Assembly: GCA_963728475.1 (NCBI GenBank)
Contig: CAVSKL010000001.1
Location: 1,674,001-1,738,000, forward strand
DNA from: CAVSKL01 sp963728475 [NCBI: Candidatus Eiseniibacteriota bacterium]
GTDB taxonomy: Bacteria > Eisenbacteria > RBG-16-71-46 > JABDJR01
DNA length: 64,000 nucleotides
Direction: 5' to 3'
Shown piece by piece: positions 5,832 through 52,054 of this stretch (the stretch's first letter is position 1; the number at the start of each line of letters is the position of its first letter). The translations under genes were made by a program, and so were the position numbers. Under the pieces are notes generated by a model. The model saw only the letters and a list, made by a program, of their open reading frames with translations. It had not been told where the DNA came from and made no database searches.

Positions 5832-6431
5832 ATGCACAAGGGACGACTGGAAGCGTTCAGCGACGGCATGATGGCCATCCTGATCACGGTCATGGTACTG
5901 GAGATGAAGGTTCCCCAGGGAACGGGCCTCGGGGCGCTCCGGCCGATGATCCCGGTGTTCCTGTCCTATGTCCTGAGTTTCGTGTTTCTGGGCATCTACT
6001 GGAACAACCACCATCACATGATGCACGCCGCCGACCGCGTTACCGGCGGCGTCCTGTGGGCCAACCTGCACCTCCTGTTCTGGCTTTCCCTCATTCCCTT
6101 CGTGACCGGGTGGATGGGGGAAAACGAGTTCGCCCCGCTGCCGGTGGCGATGTACGGGCTGGTGCTGATCCTCGCGGCGATCGCCTACACCATCCTTCAG
6201 AGCCGGATCATCCGCGCCCAGGGGGCGGGGTCCCGGCTCCGGGCCGCGGTGGGGAACGATCGCAAGGGGAAGCTGTCCATCGTGCTCTACGCCGCCGCCA
6301 TTCCCGCCGCGTTCTTGAGCACCTGGATCGCGGGCGGACTCTACGTGCTGGTCGCGCTGATCTGGCTGGTCCCGGACCGGCGGATCGAGTCCCGGCTGGC
6401 CGCCCGGCCGCCGGGTCCGCGCAGCGCGTAA
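5832..6431 (+). CDS. TMEM175/DUF1211-like potassium channel family protein
   Basis: A 199-aa integral membrane protein of the TMEM175 (DUF1211) family. The signature FSDGMMAILIT of the first pore-lining helix lies at about residues 9-19, followed by the family-typical YWNNHHHMMH after the third helix. Five to six hydrophobic helices are visible. Bacterial members form K+-conducting channels of single-repeat subunits, so an ion-leak role at the inner membrane is likely. The ATG follows AGAGGAA. The gene is bounded downstream by the composite repeat region. Confidence 0.9.
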   Translation: MHKGRLEAFSDGMMAILITVMVLEMKVPQGTGLGALRPMIPVFLSYVLSFVFLGIYWNNHHHMMHAADRVTGGVLWANLHLLFWLSLIPFVTGWMGENEFAPLPVAMYGLVLILAAIAYTILQSRIIRAQGAGSRLRAAVGNDRKGKLSIVLYAAAIPAAFLSTWIAGGLYVLVALIWLVPDRRIESRLAARPPGPRSA

Positions 6432-6448: not shown

Positions 6449-7337
6449 AGTAATCGTTCCTGATTACTTGTCCCGCAATCGAATACCCGGGTATTCTTTC
6501 TTCCAGCCGGGGTGTGCGACTGTGCGGCTCGACATGCGCGACGCGGGGGCGGCCAGCCGCGGCGCACGGTCCGATTGCGGTGTCGCGGACCTGCCGCGCC
6601 AGGCGATCTGATTGCGGTTCGCGGACCCGCCGCGCCAGGCGATCCGATTGCGGTGTCGCGGACCCGCCGCGCCAGGCGATCCGCGGGCGGCGGTGGGACG
6701 GGGCCGCGAGCCGTGCCGGATGCGGACCCGGGTTTCAAAGGGTTCCAAACCAGATGTGGACCCGGGTCCATCTCGCCCGGCTCGCACCGGCGCGCGGTTG
6801 AGGATGAGAACTCGGGCTCTAAAGGCTCCGAGGGGGGGTGGGACGCGTCCGGCTCACCCCGGCGCGCGGTTGAGGATGAGAACTCGGGCTCTAAAGGCTC
6901 CGAGGGCGGATGGGACGTGGCCGGCTCGCATCGGGGCGTTGCCGTGGCCGCGAACCCGGGTTTCAAAGGGTTCCAAACCAGATGTGGACCCGGGTCCACC
7001 TCGCCCGGCTCGCACCGGCGCGCGGTTGAGGATGAGAACTCGGGCTCTAAAGGCTCCGAGGGCGGATGGGACGTGGCCGGCTCGCATCGGGGCGCTGCCG
7101 TGGCCGCGAACCCGGGTTTCAAAGGGTTCCAAACAAGACGTGGACCCGGGTCCACCTCGCCCGGCTCGCACCGGCGCGCGGTTGATGGTGAGGACTCGGG
7201 CTCTAACGGCTCCGAGGGGGGGTGGGACGCGTCCGGCTCACCCCGGCGCGCGGTTGACGGGCGAACACTGCGGCCGGCCTGTCCGCCGGACCACCGTGGC
7301 GATTGGGTCTGCCGTGGGGATGACCCCATGTTTTACA
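6449..7337. repeat. Composite GC-rich repeat, unit 1
   Basis: This non-coding unit of 889 bp starts with AGTAATCGTTCCTGATTACT (itself an imperfect inverted repeat), then the perfect palindrome GAATACCCGGGTATTC (6481-6496), and ends with GGGGATGACCCCATGTTTT (7316-7334). Inside are three subrepeat families. Family C has three copies of a roughly 36-bp GATTGCGGTGTCGCGGAC-type repeat starting near 6571, 6608 and 6644. Family A contains CTCGGGCTCTAAAGGCTCCG, at 6811, 6883, 7039 and 7195. Family B contains CCCGGGTTTCAAAGGGTTCC and continues to GACCCGGGTCCA, near 6725, 6953 and 7109. Spacings of 156 bp recur. Open frames on both strands are low-complexity by-products of the GC content, and I see no gene. 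Confidence 0.88.
6571..6680. repeat. Subrepeat family C, three tandem copies (unit 1)
   Basis: Three direct copies of a 30-bp core (CCGATTGCGGTGTCGCGGAC continuing to YTGCCGCGCC) at a 36-37 bp period, separated by the short linker AGGCGAT. The counterpart in unit 2 (7457-7560) has period 34 and mostly a CTGT linker. Confidence 0.8.
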
Positions 7338-7456
7338 AGTAATCGTCCCTAATTATTTGTACGACAATTGAATACCCGGGTATTTCTCGTCCAGCCGGGA
7401 TGTGCGACTGTGCGGCTCGACAGGCGCGACGCGGGCGGCCAGCCGCGGCGCACGGT

Positions 7457-7560
7457 CCGATTCCGGTGTCGCGGACCCGCCGCGCCCTGTCCGATTGCGG
7501 TGTCGCGGACCTGCCGCGCCCTGTCCGATTCCGGTGTCGCGGACCCGCCGCGCCAGGCGA
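7457..7560. repeat. Subrepeat family C, three tandem copies (unit 2)
   Basis: Three direct copies of the same 30-bp core as in unit 1, at a 34-bp period, with CTGT linkers between copies. The second-to-last base block alternates between GATTCCGG and GATTGCGG. Confidence 0.8.
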
Positions 7561-7829
7561 TTCGCGGCCGGCGGCGGGACGGGGCCGCGAGCCGTGCCGG
7601 ATGCGAACCCGGGTTTCAAAGGGTTCCAAACCAGATGTGGACCCGGGTCCATCTCGCCCGGCTCGGCCGCGCCGGGCGATCCGCGGGCGGCGGCGGGACG
7701 GGGCCGCGAGCCGTGCCGGATGCGAACCCGGGTTTCAAAGGGTTCCAAACCAGATGTGGACCCGGGTCCATCTCGCCCGGCTCGCACCGGTGGCGCGGTT
7801 GATGATGAGAACTCGGGCTCTAAAGATTC

Positions 7830-9247
7830 GCCTCGTCAGCAGAATCTGTGGGCGAATTCCGGCTCGGGCAAAGCCCCGAGGGCGTGATATAGCGCGATTT
7901 CCGCGCCCCGATAGGTCCGAAAACCAAAAGCTTTTCTCGACGTCAGTTTTGCCTTGCCATTGAAGCCCTCCACGATGCCGCTGGAGAGCTGGCCTTTTGC
8001 GCGAAACCAGTTGAGCAGGAGCGCGCGGTGGCCGCGCAGCATGCGGGCGACTTTCTTCATCGGTGCGATCCTCGAGCGCATCGTCTGCGTGCACCACTGA
8101 TCGAGAAAGCGCCCGGCCCAATACGGCGAGGCGTAGCTCCAGAAGAGCTGGAACTCCTCCTTCAGCAGGTAGGCGCGCACCGAGCGCAGGTTGTATTGCA
8201 GGAGCTCGGCGAGGCGAATGTCCTGCTTGTCGGTGAGGTTCTCCGGGCGCTTCAGCAGCAGCCATCGGCTCTTCGTCAGCACCGGCTCGTACCCCCTCGC
8301 CTTGAGTGCCTTCGTCTCTGCGGCGCGCACCTCGTCCAACGCTTTGCTGAAGTGCGTCATGATGTGAAAGCGGTCGAGCACGTGCACGGCCTGGCCGGCC
8401 TTCTTCGCGATCACCTTCAGGTACGGCTTCCACATGTCCGAGCACACGTACTTCAGCTCCTGGCTGCGCTCACGCCCAACCAGCGGAAAAAGCCGAGCAG
8501 CGTCTTGATCCTGCGGTCCTTCCCGATCCACAGCAGCCGCTTGCAGTGCGCGTCGATCTGGTACACCAACGTCAAGTACTTATGCCCTCGCTGCCAGGCG
8601 ATCTCGTCGATCCCGATCGCCCGAACACCGGAGTAATCGGTCCGGGCTCGGCCCCATTCGACCGCCATCTCGACGGAACGGAATACGCTGTCCCAGGAAC
8701 TCGCAAAAACCTCCGCCACCTCCTTCCAGCTCAGCCGCCTCGCCCAGCGCGCCAAAAACCAGGCATAGGCGTCCGTCAAACGATGCTTCCCCGAGGCCCA
8801 CGGCAGGCGCTCCACCCGCACCCCGCAGCTCAAGCAATCGACCCGTCGCGGCGCGTAGACGAAAAACACCTTCATGCCCCACAGCGGCACAAACTCGAAC
8901 CGCCGCGATGGCAGCTTGTCGTAACCAGGACCCCGTCGCTTGCAGCCTGAGCAGATCGGCCGACTGTTCGACCGGGCCCGAATCTCCACCTCCACCACAA
9001 GCTGGTCATCCTCCCCCTCGGCCCATCGAATCTTCCCGTAGACAAAAGACAGATGCTTCTCAACCCGATTGAGGATAGTCTTGACCTGCACCCTTGGCCC
9101 TCCCGGTTGGTTGGTGTTGCTGCACAACACGCCATCCTCCCAGGATGTGGCCCGGGGTGCGCTCTCTTTCTCTAGCCGCTACTGATGCAAAGGCTTACCC
9201 CGTCCAAGATCAGAACAGCGACTACCCACAGATTCCGCTGAAGACCC
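7830..9247. mobile_element. ISL3-family insertion sequence
   Basis: This element of about 1418 bp contains a transposase of the ISL3 (DDE, zf-ISL3) type on the minus strand. Imperfect 23-bp terminal inverted repeats lie at 7830-7852 and 9225-9247, matching at 19 of 23 positions and sharing AATCTGTGGG. The element is flanked by AAAGATTC (7822-7829) and AAAGATTT (9248-9255), an 8-bp target duplication with one mismatch, the size usual for ISL3. It sits inside a family A copy of the composite repeat, so it arrived after the repeat. Its base composition is visibly less GC-rich than its surroundings. Confidence 0.9.
7836..9130 (-). pseudogene. ISL3-family transposase, frame broken once
   Basis: The N-terminal part (start GTG 9130, open to 8453) contains the zinc-finger region CSGCKRRG and CLSCGVRVE, a helix-turn-helix segment and the first DDE aspartate in AIGIDEIAWQRGHKYLTLVY. 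The C-terminal part (7836 to about 8475) continues with YVCSDMWKPYLKVIAKKAG (second Asp), FHIMTHFSKALDEVR and the last acidic motif SGIVEGFNGKAKLTSRKAFG. The join is at 8475-8477, where CCC on the plus strand should be four C to read FFRWLGRERSQ. All catalytic segments are otherwise intact, so this is a very recent lesion or a consensus error. Confidence 0.9.
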
Positions 9248-9507
9248 AAAGATTTCTCGGCCGGTTCGCATCGGCGCACGGTCGCCGCGAACCCGGGTTT
9301 CAAAAAGGTTCAAAAAAAGACGTGGACCCGGGTCCACCTCGCCCGGCTCGCACCGGCGCGCGGTTGATGATGAGAACTCGGGCTCTAAAGGCTCCGAGGG
9401 GGGGGTGGGACGCGTCCGGCTCACCCCGGCGCGCGGTTGACGGGCGAACGCGGCGGCGGTCACCCTGGCGGGTGGACCTCCCGGGGGAGATGACCCCATG
9501 TTTTGGC

Positions 9508-9529
9508 AGTAATCGTTCCTAATTACTTG
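9508..9529. repeat. Third copy of the repeat head motif
   Basis: The sequence AGTAATCGTTCCTAATTACT recurs here with nothing of the unit body behind it. It closes the array, so the two units are bounded by three copies of the same 22-bp motif (6449, 7338, 9508). Confidence 0.85.
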
Positions 9530-9625: not shown

Positions 9626-10657
9626 GTGAACCGCCTTCGCCTCTCCGCCGCGCTGGTCCTCGGCGCCGCGCTCCTGGCCGCCGATCCCGCCCCGCCCGGG
9701 TACGCCGTCGCCCACCGCTTCCCGGTGCCGGGGGACGGGTTCTGGGACCTCGTGGCAGTGGACGAGGCCGGCGGGCGGGTCTTCCTGACCCATTCCGTGG
9801 AGGTCCAGGTGGTGGACGGCGCCACCGGTGGGCTCCTGGGAACTATCCCCGGCACCCCGGGCGTCCACGGGATCGCGCTGGCCCCGGCCGCCGGCAAGGG
9901 GTTCGCGACCTGCGGCCGCGACAGCTCGATCGTGGTCTTCGACCTGGCCTCGCTTCGGGTGGTGGACCGCATCCCCTCCACCGGCCGGAACCCCGACGCG
10001 GTGGTGTTCGAGCCGGTCACGGGGCGTATTCTTGCGTTCAACGGGGGGAGCGGGAACGCCACCGTCATCGACGCCGCCACCGACCGCGTGGTGGGCACGG
10101 TAGCCCTTGCCGGCAAACCCGAGCTCGCGGTCGCCGACGGCCGGGGGGCGGTGTTCGTGAACCTCGAGGACCGGAGCATGGTGCAGAAGGTCGACGCCGA
10201 GAGCCTGCTGGCGGCGCCGCCATGGCCGCTGGGCCCGGGGGAGGGCCCCACCGGGCTCGCGCTGGACGCCGCCCACCACCGGCTCTTCTCCGCCTGCGGC
10301 AACCGGGTGATGGTGGTGATGAACGCGGACGACGGCGCGATCGTGGCCACCCTCCCGATCGGGGACCACGTGGACGGAGCCGTCTTCGATCCCGGGCTGG
10401 AGCGGGCCTATGCCGCCGGCGGCGACGGCACCCTCACCGTGATCCAAGAGACCGGCCCCGGCCGATTCCGGGTGCTGGAGACGGTCCCCACCGAGGCGGG
10501 AGCGCGTACGGTGGCGCTGAACGCGAAGACCCATCATCTCTACCTGCCGGCGGCGCGGTTCGGGGAAACCCCGGCGCCCACCGCGGACCATCCGAGGCCC
10601 CGGCCGCCCATCGTTCCGGGCTCGTTCATCCTGCTCGACGTGGCCCCCGCCGGCTAG
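9626..10657 (+). CDS. Secreted YVTN-type beta-propeller protein
   Basis: A 343-aa protein with a signal peptide (NRLRLSAALVLGAALLAAD) followed by repeated beta-propeller blades. Recurrent motifs include VVDGATGGLLGTI, VFDLASLRVVDRIP, VIDAATDRVVGTVAL and NADDGAIVATLPIG, as in YVTN/NHL-type propellers. GTG 9626 was chosen because GGAAGGAA lies 7 nt upstream and the signal peptide starts there. It probably acts outside the inner membrane as a binding scaffold. No catalytic residues are evident and no partner is suggested by the neighbours. Confidence 0.85.
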   Translation: MNRLRLSAALVLGAALLAADPAPPGYAVAHRFPVPGDGFWDLVAVDEAGGRVFLTHSVEVQVVDGATGGLLGTIPGTPGVHGIALAPAAGKGFATCGRDSSIVVFDLASLRVVDRIPSTGRNPDAVVFEPVTGRILAFNGGSGNATVIDAATDRVVGTVALAGKPELAVADGRGAVFVNLEDRSMVQKVDAESLLAAPPWPLGPGEGPTGLALDAAHHRLFSACGNRVMVVMNADDGAIVATLPIGDHVDGAVFDPGLERAYAAGGDGTLTVIQETGPGRFRVLETVPTEAGARTVALNAKTHHLYLPAARFGETPAPTADHPRPRPPIVPGSFILLDVAPAG

Positions 10658-12961: not shown

Positions 12962-13429
12962 CTAGACCGGATGGCGCAAGTCGTCCAGAATCGCGATCAG
13001 TTTCTTCAGCCGCGCCTCCCCGACTCCGGTGGTCCAGCGCGCCTGGGCCGCCTCGAGCGGGCCCGTCGACTTCTCCAGGAGCCCCAACCCTTTCCTGGTG
13101 ATGCGGGAGGTGACGTGCCGGCGATCCGCCCGGTCCCGAACACGCGCCACCAAGCCCACGTCCGTCATCCGATCAAGAAGCCGCGAGACGTCGGGCACCT
13201 TGGCGATCAACCGCTCGCCCACTTCCCGCCCGCAGAGCCCGTCCGTGCCGGCGCCCCGGAGGATCCGGAGAACGTTGTACTGGGAGGAGGTGAGCCCGAA
13301 CGGCTTCAACACCTCCGCCAGCGCGTGGTCGAGTATCGCCGCCGTCCGTAGAAGCCCCAATACCGCCTCGGCGGCGGGGCTCGGGAACGGCTTGGTCTGC
13401 TTGATCTCTTCCTGTAACCGGCTCTTCAT
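12962..13429 (-). CDS. MarR family transcriptional regulator
   Basis: A 155-aa winged-helix regulator. Helix-turn-helix residues GLTSSQYNVLRILRGAG (about 45-61) and the wing VRDRADRRHVTSRITRKG (about 100-117) match the MarR family; the DRAD/R motif is characteristic. ATG 13429 was chosen because the family N-terminus begins near it and a promoter places transcription start on that codon. It lies upstream of the DoxX-like gene in the same direction. Autoregulation and control of doxX are inferred from the shared operator. Confidence 0.92.
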   Translation of the reverse strand: MKSRLQEEIKQTKPFPSPAAEAVLGLLRTAAILDHALAEVLKPFGLTSSQYNVLRILRGAGTDGLCGREVGERLIAKVPDVSRLLDRMTDVGLVARVRDRADRRHVTSRITRKGLGLLEKSTGPLEAAQARWTTGVGEARLKKLIAILDDLRHPV

Positions 13430-13916
13430 GACCCCAAGATAGATGTTATAACACACATTGTCAAGGCCCTTTTTCGGGGATCCCGCCGGGGCGCCGTCCC
13501 CCCAGGCGGCGCTTGACACCGCCGGCCGGGCGGCAAAAGATTACCGGATCGGTCCGCATGGGGCGGGCCGGTCGTACCACCTCGAGGATGCATTCCGTGA
13601 AGGAAGGACCCGTGACCGGCTATATCAGCCACCAGTGAGTGGGTGAGCCGGGCGCAGGTCTGCGTCCGCTTCCCTGACTCCACGAAACCGACCGATTCCC
13701 CCCCCCGCCGGCCGGCGCCGTCCGCGGCGGGGAGCCTCGGGGCGGGAAAGGTGCGCGCGGCCCGGACCGCGGGCGCCCGTTCCCGGTCCATCCGGCTCCG
13801 GGACCCGCCGGTTTCACCCCGCCGGTCTGAATCCGTTTCCGAGCACGGCCTCGAGCCCGGCCCCCCGGCGTCCGCCGGGGGGCGGGACCACCCTCGGGAA
13901 GGGAGGCAGGCCTGTC
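13430..13916. other. Intergenic region between divergent marR and porin genes
   Basis: Besides the marR promoter, this 487-nt stretch holds a second candidate promoter on the plus strand: TTGACA at 13513-13518 with AAAGAT at 13536-13541 (17-bp spacing). A short open frame follows at 13558-13638 (26 codons, ending GYISHQ), which I do not recognise. There is a C9 run near 13698. A 9-bp perfect GC stem with a GTCC loop (13861-13882) lies 34 nt before the porin start. No larger gene is supported. Confidence 0.5.
13436..13464 (-). promoter_or_regulatory. Promoter of marR, apparently leaderless, with operator in the spacer
   Basis: On the minus strand TTGACA (13464-13459), a 17-bp spacer and TATCTT (13441-13436) form a strong sigma-70-type promoter. 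The palindrome TGTTATAACA (13444-13453) lies in the spacer. Only 6 nt separate the -10 box from the ATG at 13429, so the transcript should start at or next to the start codon. Confidence 0.7.
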
Positions 13917-18809: not shown

Positions 18810-18831
18810 CCGGTCCGAGGCCTCGGACCGG
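18810..18831. terminator. Perfect 22-bp palindrome, terminator candidate
   Basis: The sequence CCGGTCCGAGG is followed directly by its reverse complement, beginning at the last base of the GNAT stop codon region. It can fold into a very stable stem. There is no T-run, as with the other hairpins in this window. Confidence 0.4.
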
Positions 18832-47601: not shown

Positions 47602-49736
47602 ATGAACCCCGAGATCTCGGTCATCATCGTCTCCTACCGGACGCCGGACCATCTCCGGCGTTGCCTGGAGGCGCTCGGCCGGGACCGCTCTCCGCGTTCC
47701 CGCGAGATCCTGGTGGTCGACAACGCGTCCGGGGACGAGAGCCCGGAGGTGGGACGCTCCTTCGCGGGGGTGCGGGTGATCGAGAGCGGGGCCAACCTCG
47801 GCTTCGCCGGCGGGGTCAACCTCGGACTGTCCGAGGCCCGCGGACGGTACCTCGCGATCCTCAACCCGGACGTGGAAGTGCCCGAGGGCGCCCTCGACCG
47901 CCTGGCGGCGTTCCTGGAGGAGCACCCCGAGGCGGGGCTGGCCGCGCCCAAGCTCCTGAACTCCGACGGCACCCTCCAGTATTCCTGCCGCCGCTTCTAC
48001 ACGCTCGGCACCATCCTCCTTCGCCGGACCTTCCTGGGCCGGCTCTTCCCGGGGGCGCGGGCGCTCCGCCGGCACCTGATGATGGATTACGACCACGCGA
48101 CCGCCCGGGCGGTGGACTGGGTAGCGGGGGCGGCGATGATGGTCCGGCGGGAAGCGGTCGAGGACGTGGGGCCCATGGACGAGCGCTACTTCCTCTACTT
48201 CGAGGACGTGGACTGGTGCACCCGGATGCAGGCCCGGGGGTGGCTGGTCTACTACGTCCCCGGGGCGGCGGTGACTCACCACTGGCAGCGGGCGAGCCGG
48301 AGCTTCGGGCCCGCCGCCCGCCGGCACCTGGGCAGCGGACTCCGTTTTTACGACCGGTGGGGGAGCCTCCTCTACCTGCTCCGGGGCTACGGCGCCGCCT
48401 GGCGGACGGTGTCGCTGGTCGCCGGGGACGTGGTCGCGGTGGCGGCGGCCCTGGTGGTGGCCTTCCTCCTCCGCCAGCAATTCGCCTTCATCCTCCACAA
48501 GCCGGTATGGCCGCTCATCTTCTACGGCGGGTTCTTCGTGGCCAGCCTCCTGGTCTACCTGGGCACGTTCGCGGTCCAGGGGCTCTACCGGGACCTGAAG
48601 GACGGCGACTGGGTGGACGTCGCCTTCCGGGTGGCCAAGTCCGCCACCCTGGGCGCGCTCATCCTCATGGCCGCGACCTTCATCCTGAGCATGCGTTCCT
48701 ACTCGCGGTTCATCGTGTTCGGATCCTGGCCCCTGGTGGCGGCGTTCGCCTTCCTCTCGCGCCGGCTCCTCTACGCCTTGGCGGTTCGCACCCGCCGCGA
48801 CCGGTGGAACCTCCGCCGGGTGGCGCTGGTGGGCGACGATCCGGTGCTCGACCGGCTGGAGCGCTCGCTGGCCGCCGCTCCCGAGCTGGGCTGGGAGCCG
48901 GTGCGGTTCCGGAACCGGGCGCCGGGCGGGTTCGGGGTGGAGGTGCTGTTGAAGCGGCTGGGGGGGAGCGGGTGTCGGTGGCGGTGGTGACCCCGGGCTC
49001 GCTGGGGGTATCCGAGGACGCGGTGGCGGAGGCGGTGCTGCCGCTCCGGCGGGCCGGCTTCGGGGTGCGGGTGGTGTCGGAGTTCATCGCCGCCCTTCCC
49101 CGCCGGGCCCGCCTGGAGCGGGTGGGAGAGGTGACATGGCTGACTCTGGAGCGGCCGGCTCTCCACCCCTCCAAGCCGAGCAAGCGGATCCTGGATCTCG
49201 TTGCCGGGTCGGTGATTGTGGTGTTGGGAGCGGTCCCGTTCGCCCTGGTGCTGGCCGGGCGGGCGCTCTCCGGGAAAAGGATCCTGGAACCGGAAGAGGT
49301 CCTCACGGGTCGATGGGGTGAGCGGCACGGGGTCCGGCTCCTGGCCGGCCAAGGGTGGCTTCGCGAGTACCCCCTGCTCGGGAGCGTCCTCGCCGGCCGG
49401 TTCAGCCTGGTGGGCCCCCGCCCGCTCCGGCCCGGCGAGGCCGTCCCCGGCGGAGACGCCTGGTTGCGGATACGGGAACGGCATCGGCCGGGGCTGGTGG
49501 GGCCGTGGAGCCTCGCCCCCGCCCCGTCCCCCGAAGAGGAGATGCAGCAGGAACTTCGTTACATGGAGGACTGGTCCGCCGAGCTGGACCTGAAGCTCCT
49601 GGCCCGCGTGGCGCTCCGGCGTCCCGGCGGAGGGCGCGGTCGGGGTTCCCCCTCCCCGGTCACGCGGGCGCACTCCAATCAGGAACGGGCGGCGGCCCCC
49701 TCGCCGGACGCCCCTTCCGTGGGGATTCGAACGTGA
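47602..49736 (+). CDS. Rhamnosyltransferase-like GT2 fused to a WbaP-type phosphoglycosyltransferase, frame broken once
   Basis: The N-terminal GT2 domain (1-250) has ISVIIVSYRTPDHLRRCLEA, VVDNASGDESPEVGR and YFEDVDWCTRM, as in rhamnosyltransferases. It is followed by four to five helices, a Rossmann-like linker (RRVALVGDDPVLDRLERSLA) and, one frame over, the membrane domain KRILDLVAGSVIVVLGAVPF with the late motif AGRFSLVGPRPLRPGEA and EDWSAELDLKLLARVALR. The frame breaks in seven G at 48960-48966; eight restore a 711-aa protein. The phosphoglycosyltransferase core lacks the usual KFRTM segment and visible Asp-Glu dyad, so initiation activity is uncertain. Both halves are normally separate. 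Confidence 0.83.
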
Positions 49737-52054
49737 GGCTCAACTTTCTTGCCCTCGGCTCGCCGCGCCCGGCGCGGCCCCGGTTCGTCTTCGCCTTGCT
49801 CGCCGCGCCCCTGCTCGGCCTGGGCGCGCCCGCGGCGAGCGCCCAGAACGTGGTGGACGCCTTCACTCCGTACGTGAACGCGTACGATCTTCGCGACCTG
49901 GACCACGACGGGAACGGCCACCTGTGGGCGGCCAGCATGGGAGGCGGCGCGGTGCGCTACGACCTCGCCGCCGGGACCTGGACCCAGTTTCCCAAGCTTC
50001 TGAACGGCCCCCGCGGCAACGACCTCGCCACCCTCTGCATCGACGGCTCCGGCCGGGTGTGGACGGGAAGCGCCACCCGGGGCTACACGTTCTACGATCC
50101 CGCCACCGGCCGCTGGGACCGGCTGGTGGACGACTGGCCCGATCCGCACATCCGGGTGATCCGTTGTTTCGGGAACGGGGTGTACATCGGCACCCAGGCC
50201 GGGCTCACGCTCAAACCCAGCGCCAGCCGCACCGACGTCTGCGCGCCGGCCGCTCCCGGCTGCATCGTGCCCTCCTACATCGTCAACGACTACGCTCTCT
50301 CTGGCGATACCCTGTGGGTGGCCACCCAGGCCGGGCTGGCCCGCTTCAGCGGAGGCACCTGGGATTCGGCGGGGACGCTGCCGGCCGGCTCCGTGGGTTC
50401 GGCGGTGCAGTCGCTGGCGCTGCACCGGGGCGTCCTGTTCCGGGCCGGCGCCCAGGGGGTGCAACGGCTGGCCGGGGGCGCCTGGGTCCCGACCGGCCTC
50501 GCCGCCGACCGCCTGGTGGCCCAGGGGGACACCCTGTTCGCCCTTCGCGGGAGCGTTCGCGAGTTCTACCGGTGGGACGACGGGCAGGAGGCGTGGAGGG
50601 CGGTGGCGCTCTCGCGCTACCCCGACGGCGACCTCAACGACGTGGTGCAGTTGGGCGGCGTGTTCTACTTCGCCACCTCCCGGGGCATCTCCACCGCGCG
50701 GGAGGGGGACTCGACCTTCGGCGCCCAGCTCCTCCCCCCGGGGCCCCCGGTGGCCTCGCCGGTCGGGGGCATGGGGGCGGACGCCCAGGGGACGGTTTGG
50801 GCGGGAACCCAGGAGTCGGCGATCGGGCTCATGAGCTTCAACGGCGATGTCTGGTCGGCGTACACCCCGGCCGACGGGCTGCACGAGGACTGGATCTTCG
50901 GCGTCTTCCCCGACCGCCAGGGCCGGGTCTGGGTCGGGCACTGTTGCTGCGGGGACAACCTGAACGGGTGCCCCATCGATCTCCGCCTGCCCAGTGCGAT
51001 CGTCCCGTTGCCGTCGGTCCGCAACGTCTACTCCCTGGACGAGGACTCGCAGGGCCGCATCTGGACCGGCACCGACGGGCTGGGCGCCTACGTGCTTCAG
51101 GACCAGGGAGGCAACTCCTGGCAGCCGGTGCTCCATCTCGACCAGGCCTCGACCGGCGCCCGCATGGCCTCGAACTTCGTGCGCGCGGTGGCGGTGACCC
51201 CGGACGGCGTCTACCTGGGCCACCTGGCCGCGGGGCTCGACTACTGGCCCACCCAGGGGAATCTCGCCCAGGGCGCCGACGGGTCGAACTGGATCCACCT
51301 CGGCGCCGGCGCCTCCGGCCTGCTCGACCCCAACGTGACCGCCCTCACCGCGGTGGGCTCCGACGTCTGGCTGGGGACGGCGGGAGGGGGCCTTCATCTC
51401 CTCCGGGGCGGGGTGCTCCAATCCCGATGCCCCACCCGGGTCTCGGGACAGAGCGGCGACCAGCCCCGGCCGGTGAGCGCGATCGTCGCCGACCGCCAGG
51501 GAGGGATCTGGATCGGAACCTCCGGGGGGGTGCTGTACCTGCCCCGGGGCGGGACCTGCGATGCCTCGGGCGGGGAGTTCACCGTCTTCACCACCGACAA
51601 CTCCGCGCTCCCCGACGACCAGGTCACGGCGGGGACGCTCGACCCGGTGGACGGCGCGGTGTGGTTCGGCACCCGGAACGGATTCCTCCGGATCGACCCC
51701 TCCGTCTACACCGGCGGCGCCCCGCCCGCCGAGAGATACGTGCTCTACCCCAACCCCATCGATTACACCCCGGGAAGTCCGATCAGCCTGCGCCGCGTCC
51801 ATCTCGGAATCCAGGTGCGGGAGGGGGTGGTGAACCCGGTCGACCGCGGCGCCGCCGGGAAGCCGCTGGTCTACGACATCGCCGGACAGGAAGTGGGCGA
51901 GTTCGAGGAGGACAACACCACCGGGGGGAACGGGTCCTGGAGCTGGGACGGGAAGAACACCGCCGGGAACGTGGTGGCCCCCGGCCTCTATCTGGTGCGA
52001 GCCCGCACCGGCGCCAAGGGGACGGTGGTGCTCCGGTTGGGAGTGGTGCGGTGA
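49733..52054 (+). CDS. Exported propeller protein (two-component-regulator type) with FlgD-like C-terminus
   Basis: A 773-aa exported protein with a signal peptide ending APAASAQNV. It contains many blades of the two-component-regulator propeller type: DLDHDGNGHLWAASMGGG, SGRVWTGSATRGYTFYDP, VWAGTQESAIGLMSF and IWTGTDGLGAYVL. The C-terminal 90 residues are an Ig-like domain (YVLYPNPIDYTPGSPI, then SWSWDGKNTAGNVVAPGLYL) similar to FlgD-like or secretion-sorting domains of the FCB group. It is probably anchored or exported at the cell surface. GTG start is inside the previous stop. Its role in the glycan locus is unknown. Confidence 0.85.
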   Translation: MRLNFLALGSPRPARPRFVFALLAAPLLGLGAPAASAQNVVDAFTPYVNAYDLRDLDHDGNGHLWAASMGGGAVRYDLAAGTWTQFPKLLNGPRGNDLATLCIDGSGRVWTGSATRGYTFYDPATGRWDRLVDDWPDPHIRVIRCFGNGVYIGTQAGLTLKPSASRTDVCAPAAPGCIVPSYIVNDYALSGDTLWVATQAGLARFSGGTWDSAGTLPAGSVGSAVQSLALHRGVLFRAGAQGVQRLAGGAWVPTGLAADRLVAQGDTLFALRGSVREFYRWDDGQEAWRAVALSRYPDGDLNDVVQLGGVFYFATSRGISTAREGDSTFGAQLLPPGPPVASPVGGMGADAQGTVWAGTQESAIGLMSFNGDVWSAYTPADGLHEDWIFGVFPDRQGRVWVGHCCCGDNLNGCPIDLRLPSAIVPLPSVRNVYSLDEDSQGRIWTGTDGLGAYVLQDQGGNSWQPVLHLDQASTGARMASNFVRAVAVTPDGVYLGHLAAGLDYWPTQGNLAQGADGSNWIHLGAGASGLLDPNVTALTAVGSDVWLGTAGGGLHLLRGGVLQSRCPTRVSGQSGDQPRPVSAIVADRQGGIWIGTSGGVLYLPRGGTCDASGGEFTVFTTDNSALPDDQVTAGTLDPVDGAVWFGTRNGFLRIDPSVYTGGAPPAERYVLYPNPIDYTPGSPISLRRVHLGIQVREGVVNPVDRGAAGKPLVYDIAGQEVGEFEEDNTTGGNGSWSWDGKNTAGNVVAPGLYLVRARTGAKGTVVLRLGVVR

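What the first reader, a model, noticed from the sequence alone, without database searches (positions are those of the whole stretch)
6449..9529. Two-unit composite repeat with nested subrepeats and three boundary motifs
Seen directly: a 22-bp motif (AGTAATCGTYCCTRATTAYT-type) at 6449, 7338 and 9508 delimits two units, both ending in GATGACCCCATGTTTT and both carrying a CCCGGG-centred palindrome near the head. Inside each, three subrepeat families (A, B, C) recur in different order and number, with several 156-bp spacings. No reading frame is convincing and no known mobile family is evident to me. Such a modular non-coding element might be a large REP/MITE-like structure, a structured RNA or a nucleoid or partition site.
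Basis: seen in the sequence. Interest (0 to 1): 0.72.

Follow-up and report, generated by a model that had tools for sequence, protein, structure and literature searches.

The report
Tandem non-coding modular repeat element
Between two ordinary genes lies a pair of related, gene-less repeat blocks separated and flanked by the same short palindrome-like motif, one of them broken by a common jumping gene; it looks like a modular bacterial repeat element, but with only one locus in hand its movement and function are unproven.

Summary
A 22-bp motif (M) occurs three times and nowhere else in the window. It delimits two homologous non-coding units (889 bp; 744 bp once an insertion is set aside) that agree at 659 of 739 aligned columns and share head, subrepeat families A, B and C, and tail.

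A reading frame and a known mobile family are thus present, but as a passenger, not as the repeat itself.

The units look non-coding: no codon-position bias, and gaps between units that are mostly not multiples of three. No Rfam family reaches its threshold; folding is weakly better than shuffles on both strands.

No relative was found, but the host genome is not held and its close relatives could not be reached, so whether it is a dispersed family is open.

Best reading: a gene-less composite intergenic repeat in M-X-M-X-M geometry, arising by recombination at M, with slippage remodelling the inner arrays. Confidence is moderate to low.

The parts
6449..6470 (+). M1: 22-bp boundary motif AGTAATCGTTCCTGATTACTTG (7-bp arms around 6 bp), 17 bp after the stop codon of the TMEM175-like gene
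   Evidence: 3 matches, 0 in 100 shuffles; arms; position
6449..7337 (+). Unit 1 (889 bp): M1, head, C array, A/B array, tail
6481..6496 (.). head palindrome GAATACCCGGGTATTC, unit 1
6570..6683 (+). C array of unit 1, 37-bp period, 3.1 copies
6722..7257 (+). A/B array of unit 1: A cores at 6724, 6952, 7108; B cores at 6808, 6880, 7036, 7192
7319..7334 (+). tail motif GATGACCCCATGTTTT, unit 1
   Evidence: family D8
7338..7359 (+). M2: AGTAATCGTCCCTAATTATTTG, junction of the two units
   Evidence: imperfect arms
7338..9507 (+). Unit 2 (744 bp plus a 1418-bp IS and one 8-bp target duplication)
7371..7384 (.). head palindrome AATACCCGGGTATT, unit 2
7443..7554 (+). C array of unit 2, 34-bp period, 3.3 copies
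7547..7829 (+). A/B array of unit 2 left of the IS: A cores at 7605 and 7724 (119-bp period), B core at 7809 cut by the IS
7822..7829 (.). target-site duplication AAAGATTC, left of the IS
7830..9247 (-). ISL3-family insertion sequence; transposase split between 8453-9130 and 7836-8531 (frameshift); terminal repeats agree at 19 of 23 positions
   Evidence: (pair I2)
9248..9255 (.). target-site duplication AAAGATTT, right of the IS (7 of 8 match)
9256..9488 (+). rest of unit 2: last A (from about 9289), last B core (9374), region before the tail
9489..9504 (+). tail motif GATGACCCCATGTTTT, unit 2
   Evidence: D8
9508..9529 (+). M3: AGTAATCGTTCCTAATTACTTG, right outer boundary, 96 bp before the GTG that I take as start of the beta-propeller gene

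Best explanation
A gene-less composite intergenic repeat element (head, C array, A/B array, tail) present as two diverged tandem copies in the layout M-X-M-X-M between a TMEM175-like gene and a beta-propeller gene. M, a 22-bp palindrome-like motif, is the joint at which units were gained: a unit integrated at M through a recombinase supplied from elsewhere, or a unit flanked by M was copied by exchange between M copies. Slippage then changed the numbers of C, A and B repeats in each unit, and an ISL3-family IS landed in a B repeat of unit 2 and decayed. Shown: layout, homology of the units, lack of coding signal, the IS insertion. Inferred: that M is where recombination happened, that slippage changed the arrays, that first-type and last-type A copies were distinct before the units split, and that the CCCGGG-centred palindromes are bound by a dimeric protein.
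For: M lies three times exactly at the unit ends, 0 in shuffles. The third M calls for an M-X-M ancestor, which duplicating a unit with M on one side only does not give. Units align end to end, 659 of 739 columns identical. The 16-bp tail beside M is identical, while the 40 ungapped columns before it match at 29; the 44-bp tail-M stretch is 86% alike (D8). G+C at the three codon positions is flat in the units (0.68-0.74) against 0.445-0.90 in TMEM175 and 0.53-0.92 in the propeller gene. Gaps between units: 1,1,1,1,1,1,2,3,3,71,27,11,15,3,14. Last A copies share AAGACG and CCACC in both units; u1A1, u2A1 and u2A2 share CAGATG and CCATC. Perfect palindromes of 12 bp or more: 8 in 1,654 nt of the units, 48 in the other 62,346 nt; the 8 are copies of two sequences.
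Against: No second locus, empty site or recombinase is known. Scans of viral contigs, one pattern in genome contigs, plasmids, phages and 392 genomes of one group gave no match that I accept as a relative. M does not resemble dif: best 10-11 of 28, background mean 9.0, maximum 13 of 619 places. No recombinase among the 10 further window proteins scanned. Stem extension beyond M is no better than with random flanks (465, 791 and 1941 of 2000 as low), and M2 is an imperfect palindrome. The middle A of unit 1 mixes both A types, and by raw distance the last A of unit 1 is nearer to its own middle copy (2 differences) than to the last A of unit 2 (5), so old positional identity rests on few shared bases. 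With units 89% alike overall, a 16-base identical tail is not by itself remarkable.
Confidence: 0.4

Rival explanations
1. A local, non-mobile cis-acting array (protein-binding sites) between two genes, doubled by unequal crossing over between M copies and reshaped by slippage; the palindromes serve as binding sites of a dimeric regulator or chromosome-organising protein.
For: ACCCGGGT sits in both head palindromes and twice in each of the six A copies: 14 of the window's 20, 2.8-3.9 expected in the whole window. Only one locus in 64 kb: the best blastn matches elsewhere in the window are short, E 0.001 or weaker. Palindrome arms differ (AAT/ATT, TGG/CCA) while the core is kept.
Against: The 14 copies are duplicates of three sites. 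Match to the Noc-site consensus is 10 of 16, which 14 of 172 CCCGGG-centred 16-mers in the window reach, these included. No partner gene recognised among the 10 proteins; the MarR-like gene there (12962-13519) has no shown link. An IS inside unit 2 suggests that at least that copy is dispensable.
Confidence: 0.35
2. A large structured non-coding RNA made from the plus strand, starting in the head and ending at the tail hairpin.
For: In unit 1 the tail can form TGGGG-ATGA-CCCCA followed by TGTTTT. Predicted energy of unit 1 is below the shuffle mean (z -1.92, 0 of 20 shuffles as low).
Against: The minus strand does so too (z -2.28, 1 of 20). The tail hairpin is not in the predicted fold of unit 2. 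No promoter-like site. All 7 terminator-like hits are on the minus strand, 6 of them at A palindromes and 1 in the IS; shuffle mean 2.6. No Rfam family at threshold, two far-below-threshold hits with relaxed limits. Array length differs strongly between units.
Confidence: 0.1
3. Degenerate remnants of a gene for a repeat protein.
For: Long open frames cross the units, and the 72- and 156-bp periods are multiples of three.
Against: 34-, 37- and 119-bp periods, 1- and 2-base gaps between units, flat codon-position composition, no Pfam match at E 0.1 for five such ORFs.
Confidence: 0.03

Closest known systems
BOX elements of Streptococcus pneumoniae (PMC3049150; passages read)
   Same: Composite repeat without a gene: end modules around a variable number of inner tandem modules
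   Different: BOX elements are 67-637 bp interspersed repeats with one inner module type; here units are 744-889 bp with three subrepeat families, joined by a 22-bp motif, and known from one locus. No BOX sequence was compared
MITEs (definition as given in PMC3049150)
   Same: Non-coding, palindrome-bearing, intergenic
   Different: No terminal inverted repeats at unit ends; GC-rich rather than AT-rich; flanked by direct 22-bp copies of M rather than a short target duplication
Xer-site modules and IMEX elements (listing titles and abstract starts only)
   Same: Segments flanked by short recombination sites (layout partly recalled)
   Different: M shows no dif similarity; no genes carried; recombination not shown
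ISL3-family insertion sequences
   Same: The 1418-bp insertion in unit 2 is one: PF01610 transposase, terminal repeats, 8-bp duplication; that 8 bp is usual for ISL3 is recalled
   Different: It is a passenger, not the repeat element; its transposase is frameshifted
Noc-binding sites (consensus from a passage of PMC7383237)
   Same: Palindrome centred on CCCGGG
   Different: Outer bases do not match; 10 of 16 is common for CCCGGG sites in this window

Membership tests
ISL3-family IS (for 7830-9247) | DDE_Tnp_ISL3 transposase | tested here: met
   PF01610 E 9.8e-61 and 1.2e-9 in two frames; 63% identity to transposases annotated ISL3 family on Paraburkholderia plasmids
ISL3-family IS (for 7830-9247) | terminal inverted repeats and 8-bp target duplication | tested here: met
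   19 of 23; AAAGATTC / AAAGATTT, 7 of 8
MITE | terminal inverted repeats at the unit ends | tested here: not met
   best 9-11 of 30 positions; 476 to 965 of 1000 shuffles as good
MITE | dispersed copies in the genome | not testable with these tools
   no genome held; one locus in the window
BOX element | end modules with a variable number of inner modules | tested here: met
   likeness of layout only
BOX element | sequence match to boxA/boxB/boxC | not tested
   no BOX sequence was compared
Xer/dif module (IMEX, pdif) | boundary motif matches dif | tested here: not met
   10, 11 and 11 of 28 against E. coli dif (sequence recalled), background mean 9.0, maximum 13; dif of the host is unknown
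Known structured RNA family | match to an Rfam model at its gathering score | tested here: not met
   0 matches in the window
Noc-binding site | match to the NBS consensus | tested here: not met
   10 of 16, reached by 14 of 172 CCCGGG-centred 16-mers
parS cluster | match to the parS consensus | not tested
   parS was not scored
Integron cassette array | attC core sites and integrase | not tested
   only a by-eye look for core sites (motif recalled); no integrase among the 10 proteins

The most novel reading that the evidence does not exclude
A gene-less element that inserts site-specifically at a 22-bp palindrome-like motif, using a recombinase supplied from elsewhere, leaves the motif on both sides and can therefore stack in tandem, while its inner arrays of dimeric protein-binding sites expand and shrink: a new class of parasitic or regulatory integrating DNA.
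Probability: 0.12. Interest if true: 0.65.

Novelty: new variant of a known kind. Interest (0 to 1): 0.3.

Why it matters
If copies are found elsewhere in the genome or in relatives, this would be a large modular non-coding repeat family with a defined joint sequence, and comparing empty sites would directly show whether gene-less DNA can integrate at such a motif in trans. If it is confined to this spacer, it is an ordinary local satellite.

Tried and rejected
Searches for relatives. Viral contigs: shared A/B core 0, M 0, head 22-mer 0, tail+M 0; a looser M gave 2 stretches, 35% and 30% G+C, in which blastn finds no part of the element other than M itself in one and nothing in the other; read as chance. 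Plasmids and phages by blastn: none. Two genomes reached through those loci: 0 of 2. 392 genomes of the group of G002 (probably Planctomycetota, from its record title): 31 of 392 had matches, 34 places of 26-70 nt, best E 1.9e-5, read as GC-rich chance without inspecting each; no more than two candidates per genome were scored in the rows shown, so this is a weak negative. Beta-propeller protein: 120 of 392 and 37 of 148 genomes matched, highest identities among the leading full-length hits 51 and 52%; none of the 10 loci held from them has an M-like site within 5 mismatches, so no empty site was seen. ISL3 domain: 11 of 59 genomes and one viral locus at 45% identity, showing only that the family is common. 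The plasmid relative fetched did not help to place the IS ends.

Extended hairpin around M: seemed striking in M1 and M2, rejected after a random-flank control. dif and Noc-site likeness: rejected. Coding origin: rejected. Rfam with relaxed limit: mir-322 (22 bits, threshold 62) and sR30 (15.9 bits, threshold 38) only. Papers: "Eisenbacteria + repeats + intergenic" held by 0 papers; a six-term general search gave one review, seen as a listing only; listings were used for leads.

Changes after re-checking: one search was run; M2 is now described as an imperfect palindrome, the tail comparison was recounted, the terminal-repeat test of the units was done properly, and the distances that speak against old positional identity of A copies were added.

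Full report
What is there. The span lies between a TMEM175-like gene (5832-6431, PF06736) and a beta-propeller gene, whose start I take as the GTG at 9626 (the listed frame opens earlier, at 9503). It holds three copies of a 22-bp motif M, at 6449, 7338 and 9508: with three mismatches allowed there are 3 in 64 kb and none in 100 shuffles. M1 has 7-bp palindromic arms, M3 6-bp arms, and M2 one mismatch within them. M1-M2 bound unit 1 (889 bp); M2-M3 bound unit 2, which is longer only because an insertion sequence of 1418 bp sits in it.

The insertion. Two overlapping minus-strand frames (8453-9130, 7836-8531) match the ISL3-family transposase model PF01610; the best plasmid matches are transposases annotated as ISL3 family, 63% identical in Paraburkholderia. 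The ends carry related inverted repeats (19 of 23 positions) flanked by AAAGATTC and AAAGATTT. This is an ordinary IS with an 8-bp target duplication, inserted in a B subrepeat (core at 7809) and carrying a frameshift.

The repeat units. With the IS set aside, the units align over 739 columns, 659 identical. Both have M, a head with a CCCGGG-centred palindrome, a C array (37-bp period in unit 1, 34-bp in unit 2), A and B modules, and a tail ending in GATGACCCCATGTTTT. A occurs six times, B six times (one split), C six times by an exact pattern. A and B share a core (GAACYCGGGYTYNAAAGGSTYC: 11 matches in the window with up to 3 mismatches, 0.06 expected, none outside the units; the last A escapes it by an indel). 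The last A copies of both units share AAGACG and CCACC, and u1A1, u2A1 and u2A2 share CAGATG and CCATC; the middle A of unit 1 mixes the two. This suggests that first and last A were distinct before the units separated, and that extra copies came later. Against this, the last A of unit 1 is nearer by raw count to its middle neighbour (2 differences) than to the last A of unit 2 (5), so the inference is soft.

Coding and RNA tests. Codon-position G+C is flat in the units and uneven in the two flanking genes and the transposase. Gaps between units include lengths 1, 2, 11, 14 and 71. Five ORFs across the units have no Pfam match at E 0.1. Rfam gives nothing at threshold. Unit 1 folds slightly better than shuffles on either strand (z -1.92, 0 of 20 as low; z -2.28, 1 of 20), as palindromes would cause; unit 2 was not folded as a whole. 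No promoter-like site was found; the 7 terminator-like hits are all on the minus strand, 6 at the A palindromes and 1 in the IS, against a shuffle mean of 2.6.

Mechanism. The geometry M-X-M-X-M means that a single-unit ancestor probably had M on both sides. Exchange between two M copies, or integration at M, gives the third M; duplication of a unit with M on one side only does not. M1 looks like a recombinase site in outline, but M does not resemble dif, no recombinase was found among ten further window proteins scanned, and the apparent longer stem around M1 and M2 disappears against random flanks. I hold integration and simple M-by-M duplication nearly equal. The ACCCGGGT palindromes (14 of 20 in the window; 2.8-3.9 expected) hint at a dimeric DNA-binding protein, but they are copies of three sites, and the likeness to Noc sites is no more than usual.

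Limits. The window's genome is not held, so the most important test, whether copies exist elsewhere in the genome or in near relatives, could not be made. Negative scans cover viral contigs, one pattern in genome contigs, plasmids, phages and one probably unrelated group, the last with no more than two candidates scored per genome in the rows shown. They do not show absence in relatives. The organism is unknown; G+C is 71%, and a link to Eisenbacteria or their neighbours is only my guess from protein style.

Comparison. In layout it is nearest to BOX elements (passages of PMC3049150): end modules around variable inner modules, no gene. It differs in size, in having three subrepeat families, and in being joined by a 22-bp motif. 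It fails the inverted-repeat criterion of MITEs and the dif criterion of Xer modules. I rate it a new variant of a known kind, of modest interest until a second locus is found.

Noticed in passing
window 16429, 18815, 31781, 44150, 56472, 58471: The 12-mer palindrome CCGAGGCCTCGG occurs six times (0.04-0.07 expected by Markov models). Five lie inside frames that I take as genes; one is the centre of a 22-bp perfect palindrome (18810-18831) just after a stop codon. It recalls the highly iterated palindromes of cyanobacteria (abstract start of PMC4390886).
   Followed up: partly
window 7836-9130: Transposase of the ISL3-family IS is split by a frameshift between two overlapping frames: decay or an assembly error.
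   Followed up: partly
window about 21000-61000: Long run of genes that read like polysaccharide biosynthesis (glycosyltransferases, nucleotide-sugar epimerases, flippase-like protein), judged by eye from the translations; not scanned for families.
   Followed up: no
window 49355-52054: A frame that reads like a two-component-regulator propeller protein ending in a FlgD-like segment (VYDIAGQEVGEF...), a style I associate from memory with FCB-group bacteria.
   Followed up: no
L017 2303-2324: A 35% G+C viral contig carries a near-copy of M (1 mismatch of 22) without the rest of the element; probably chance.
   Followed up: partly
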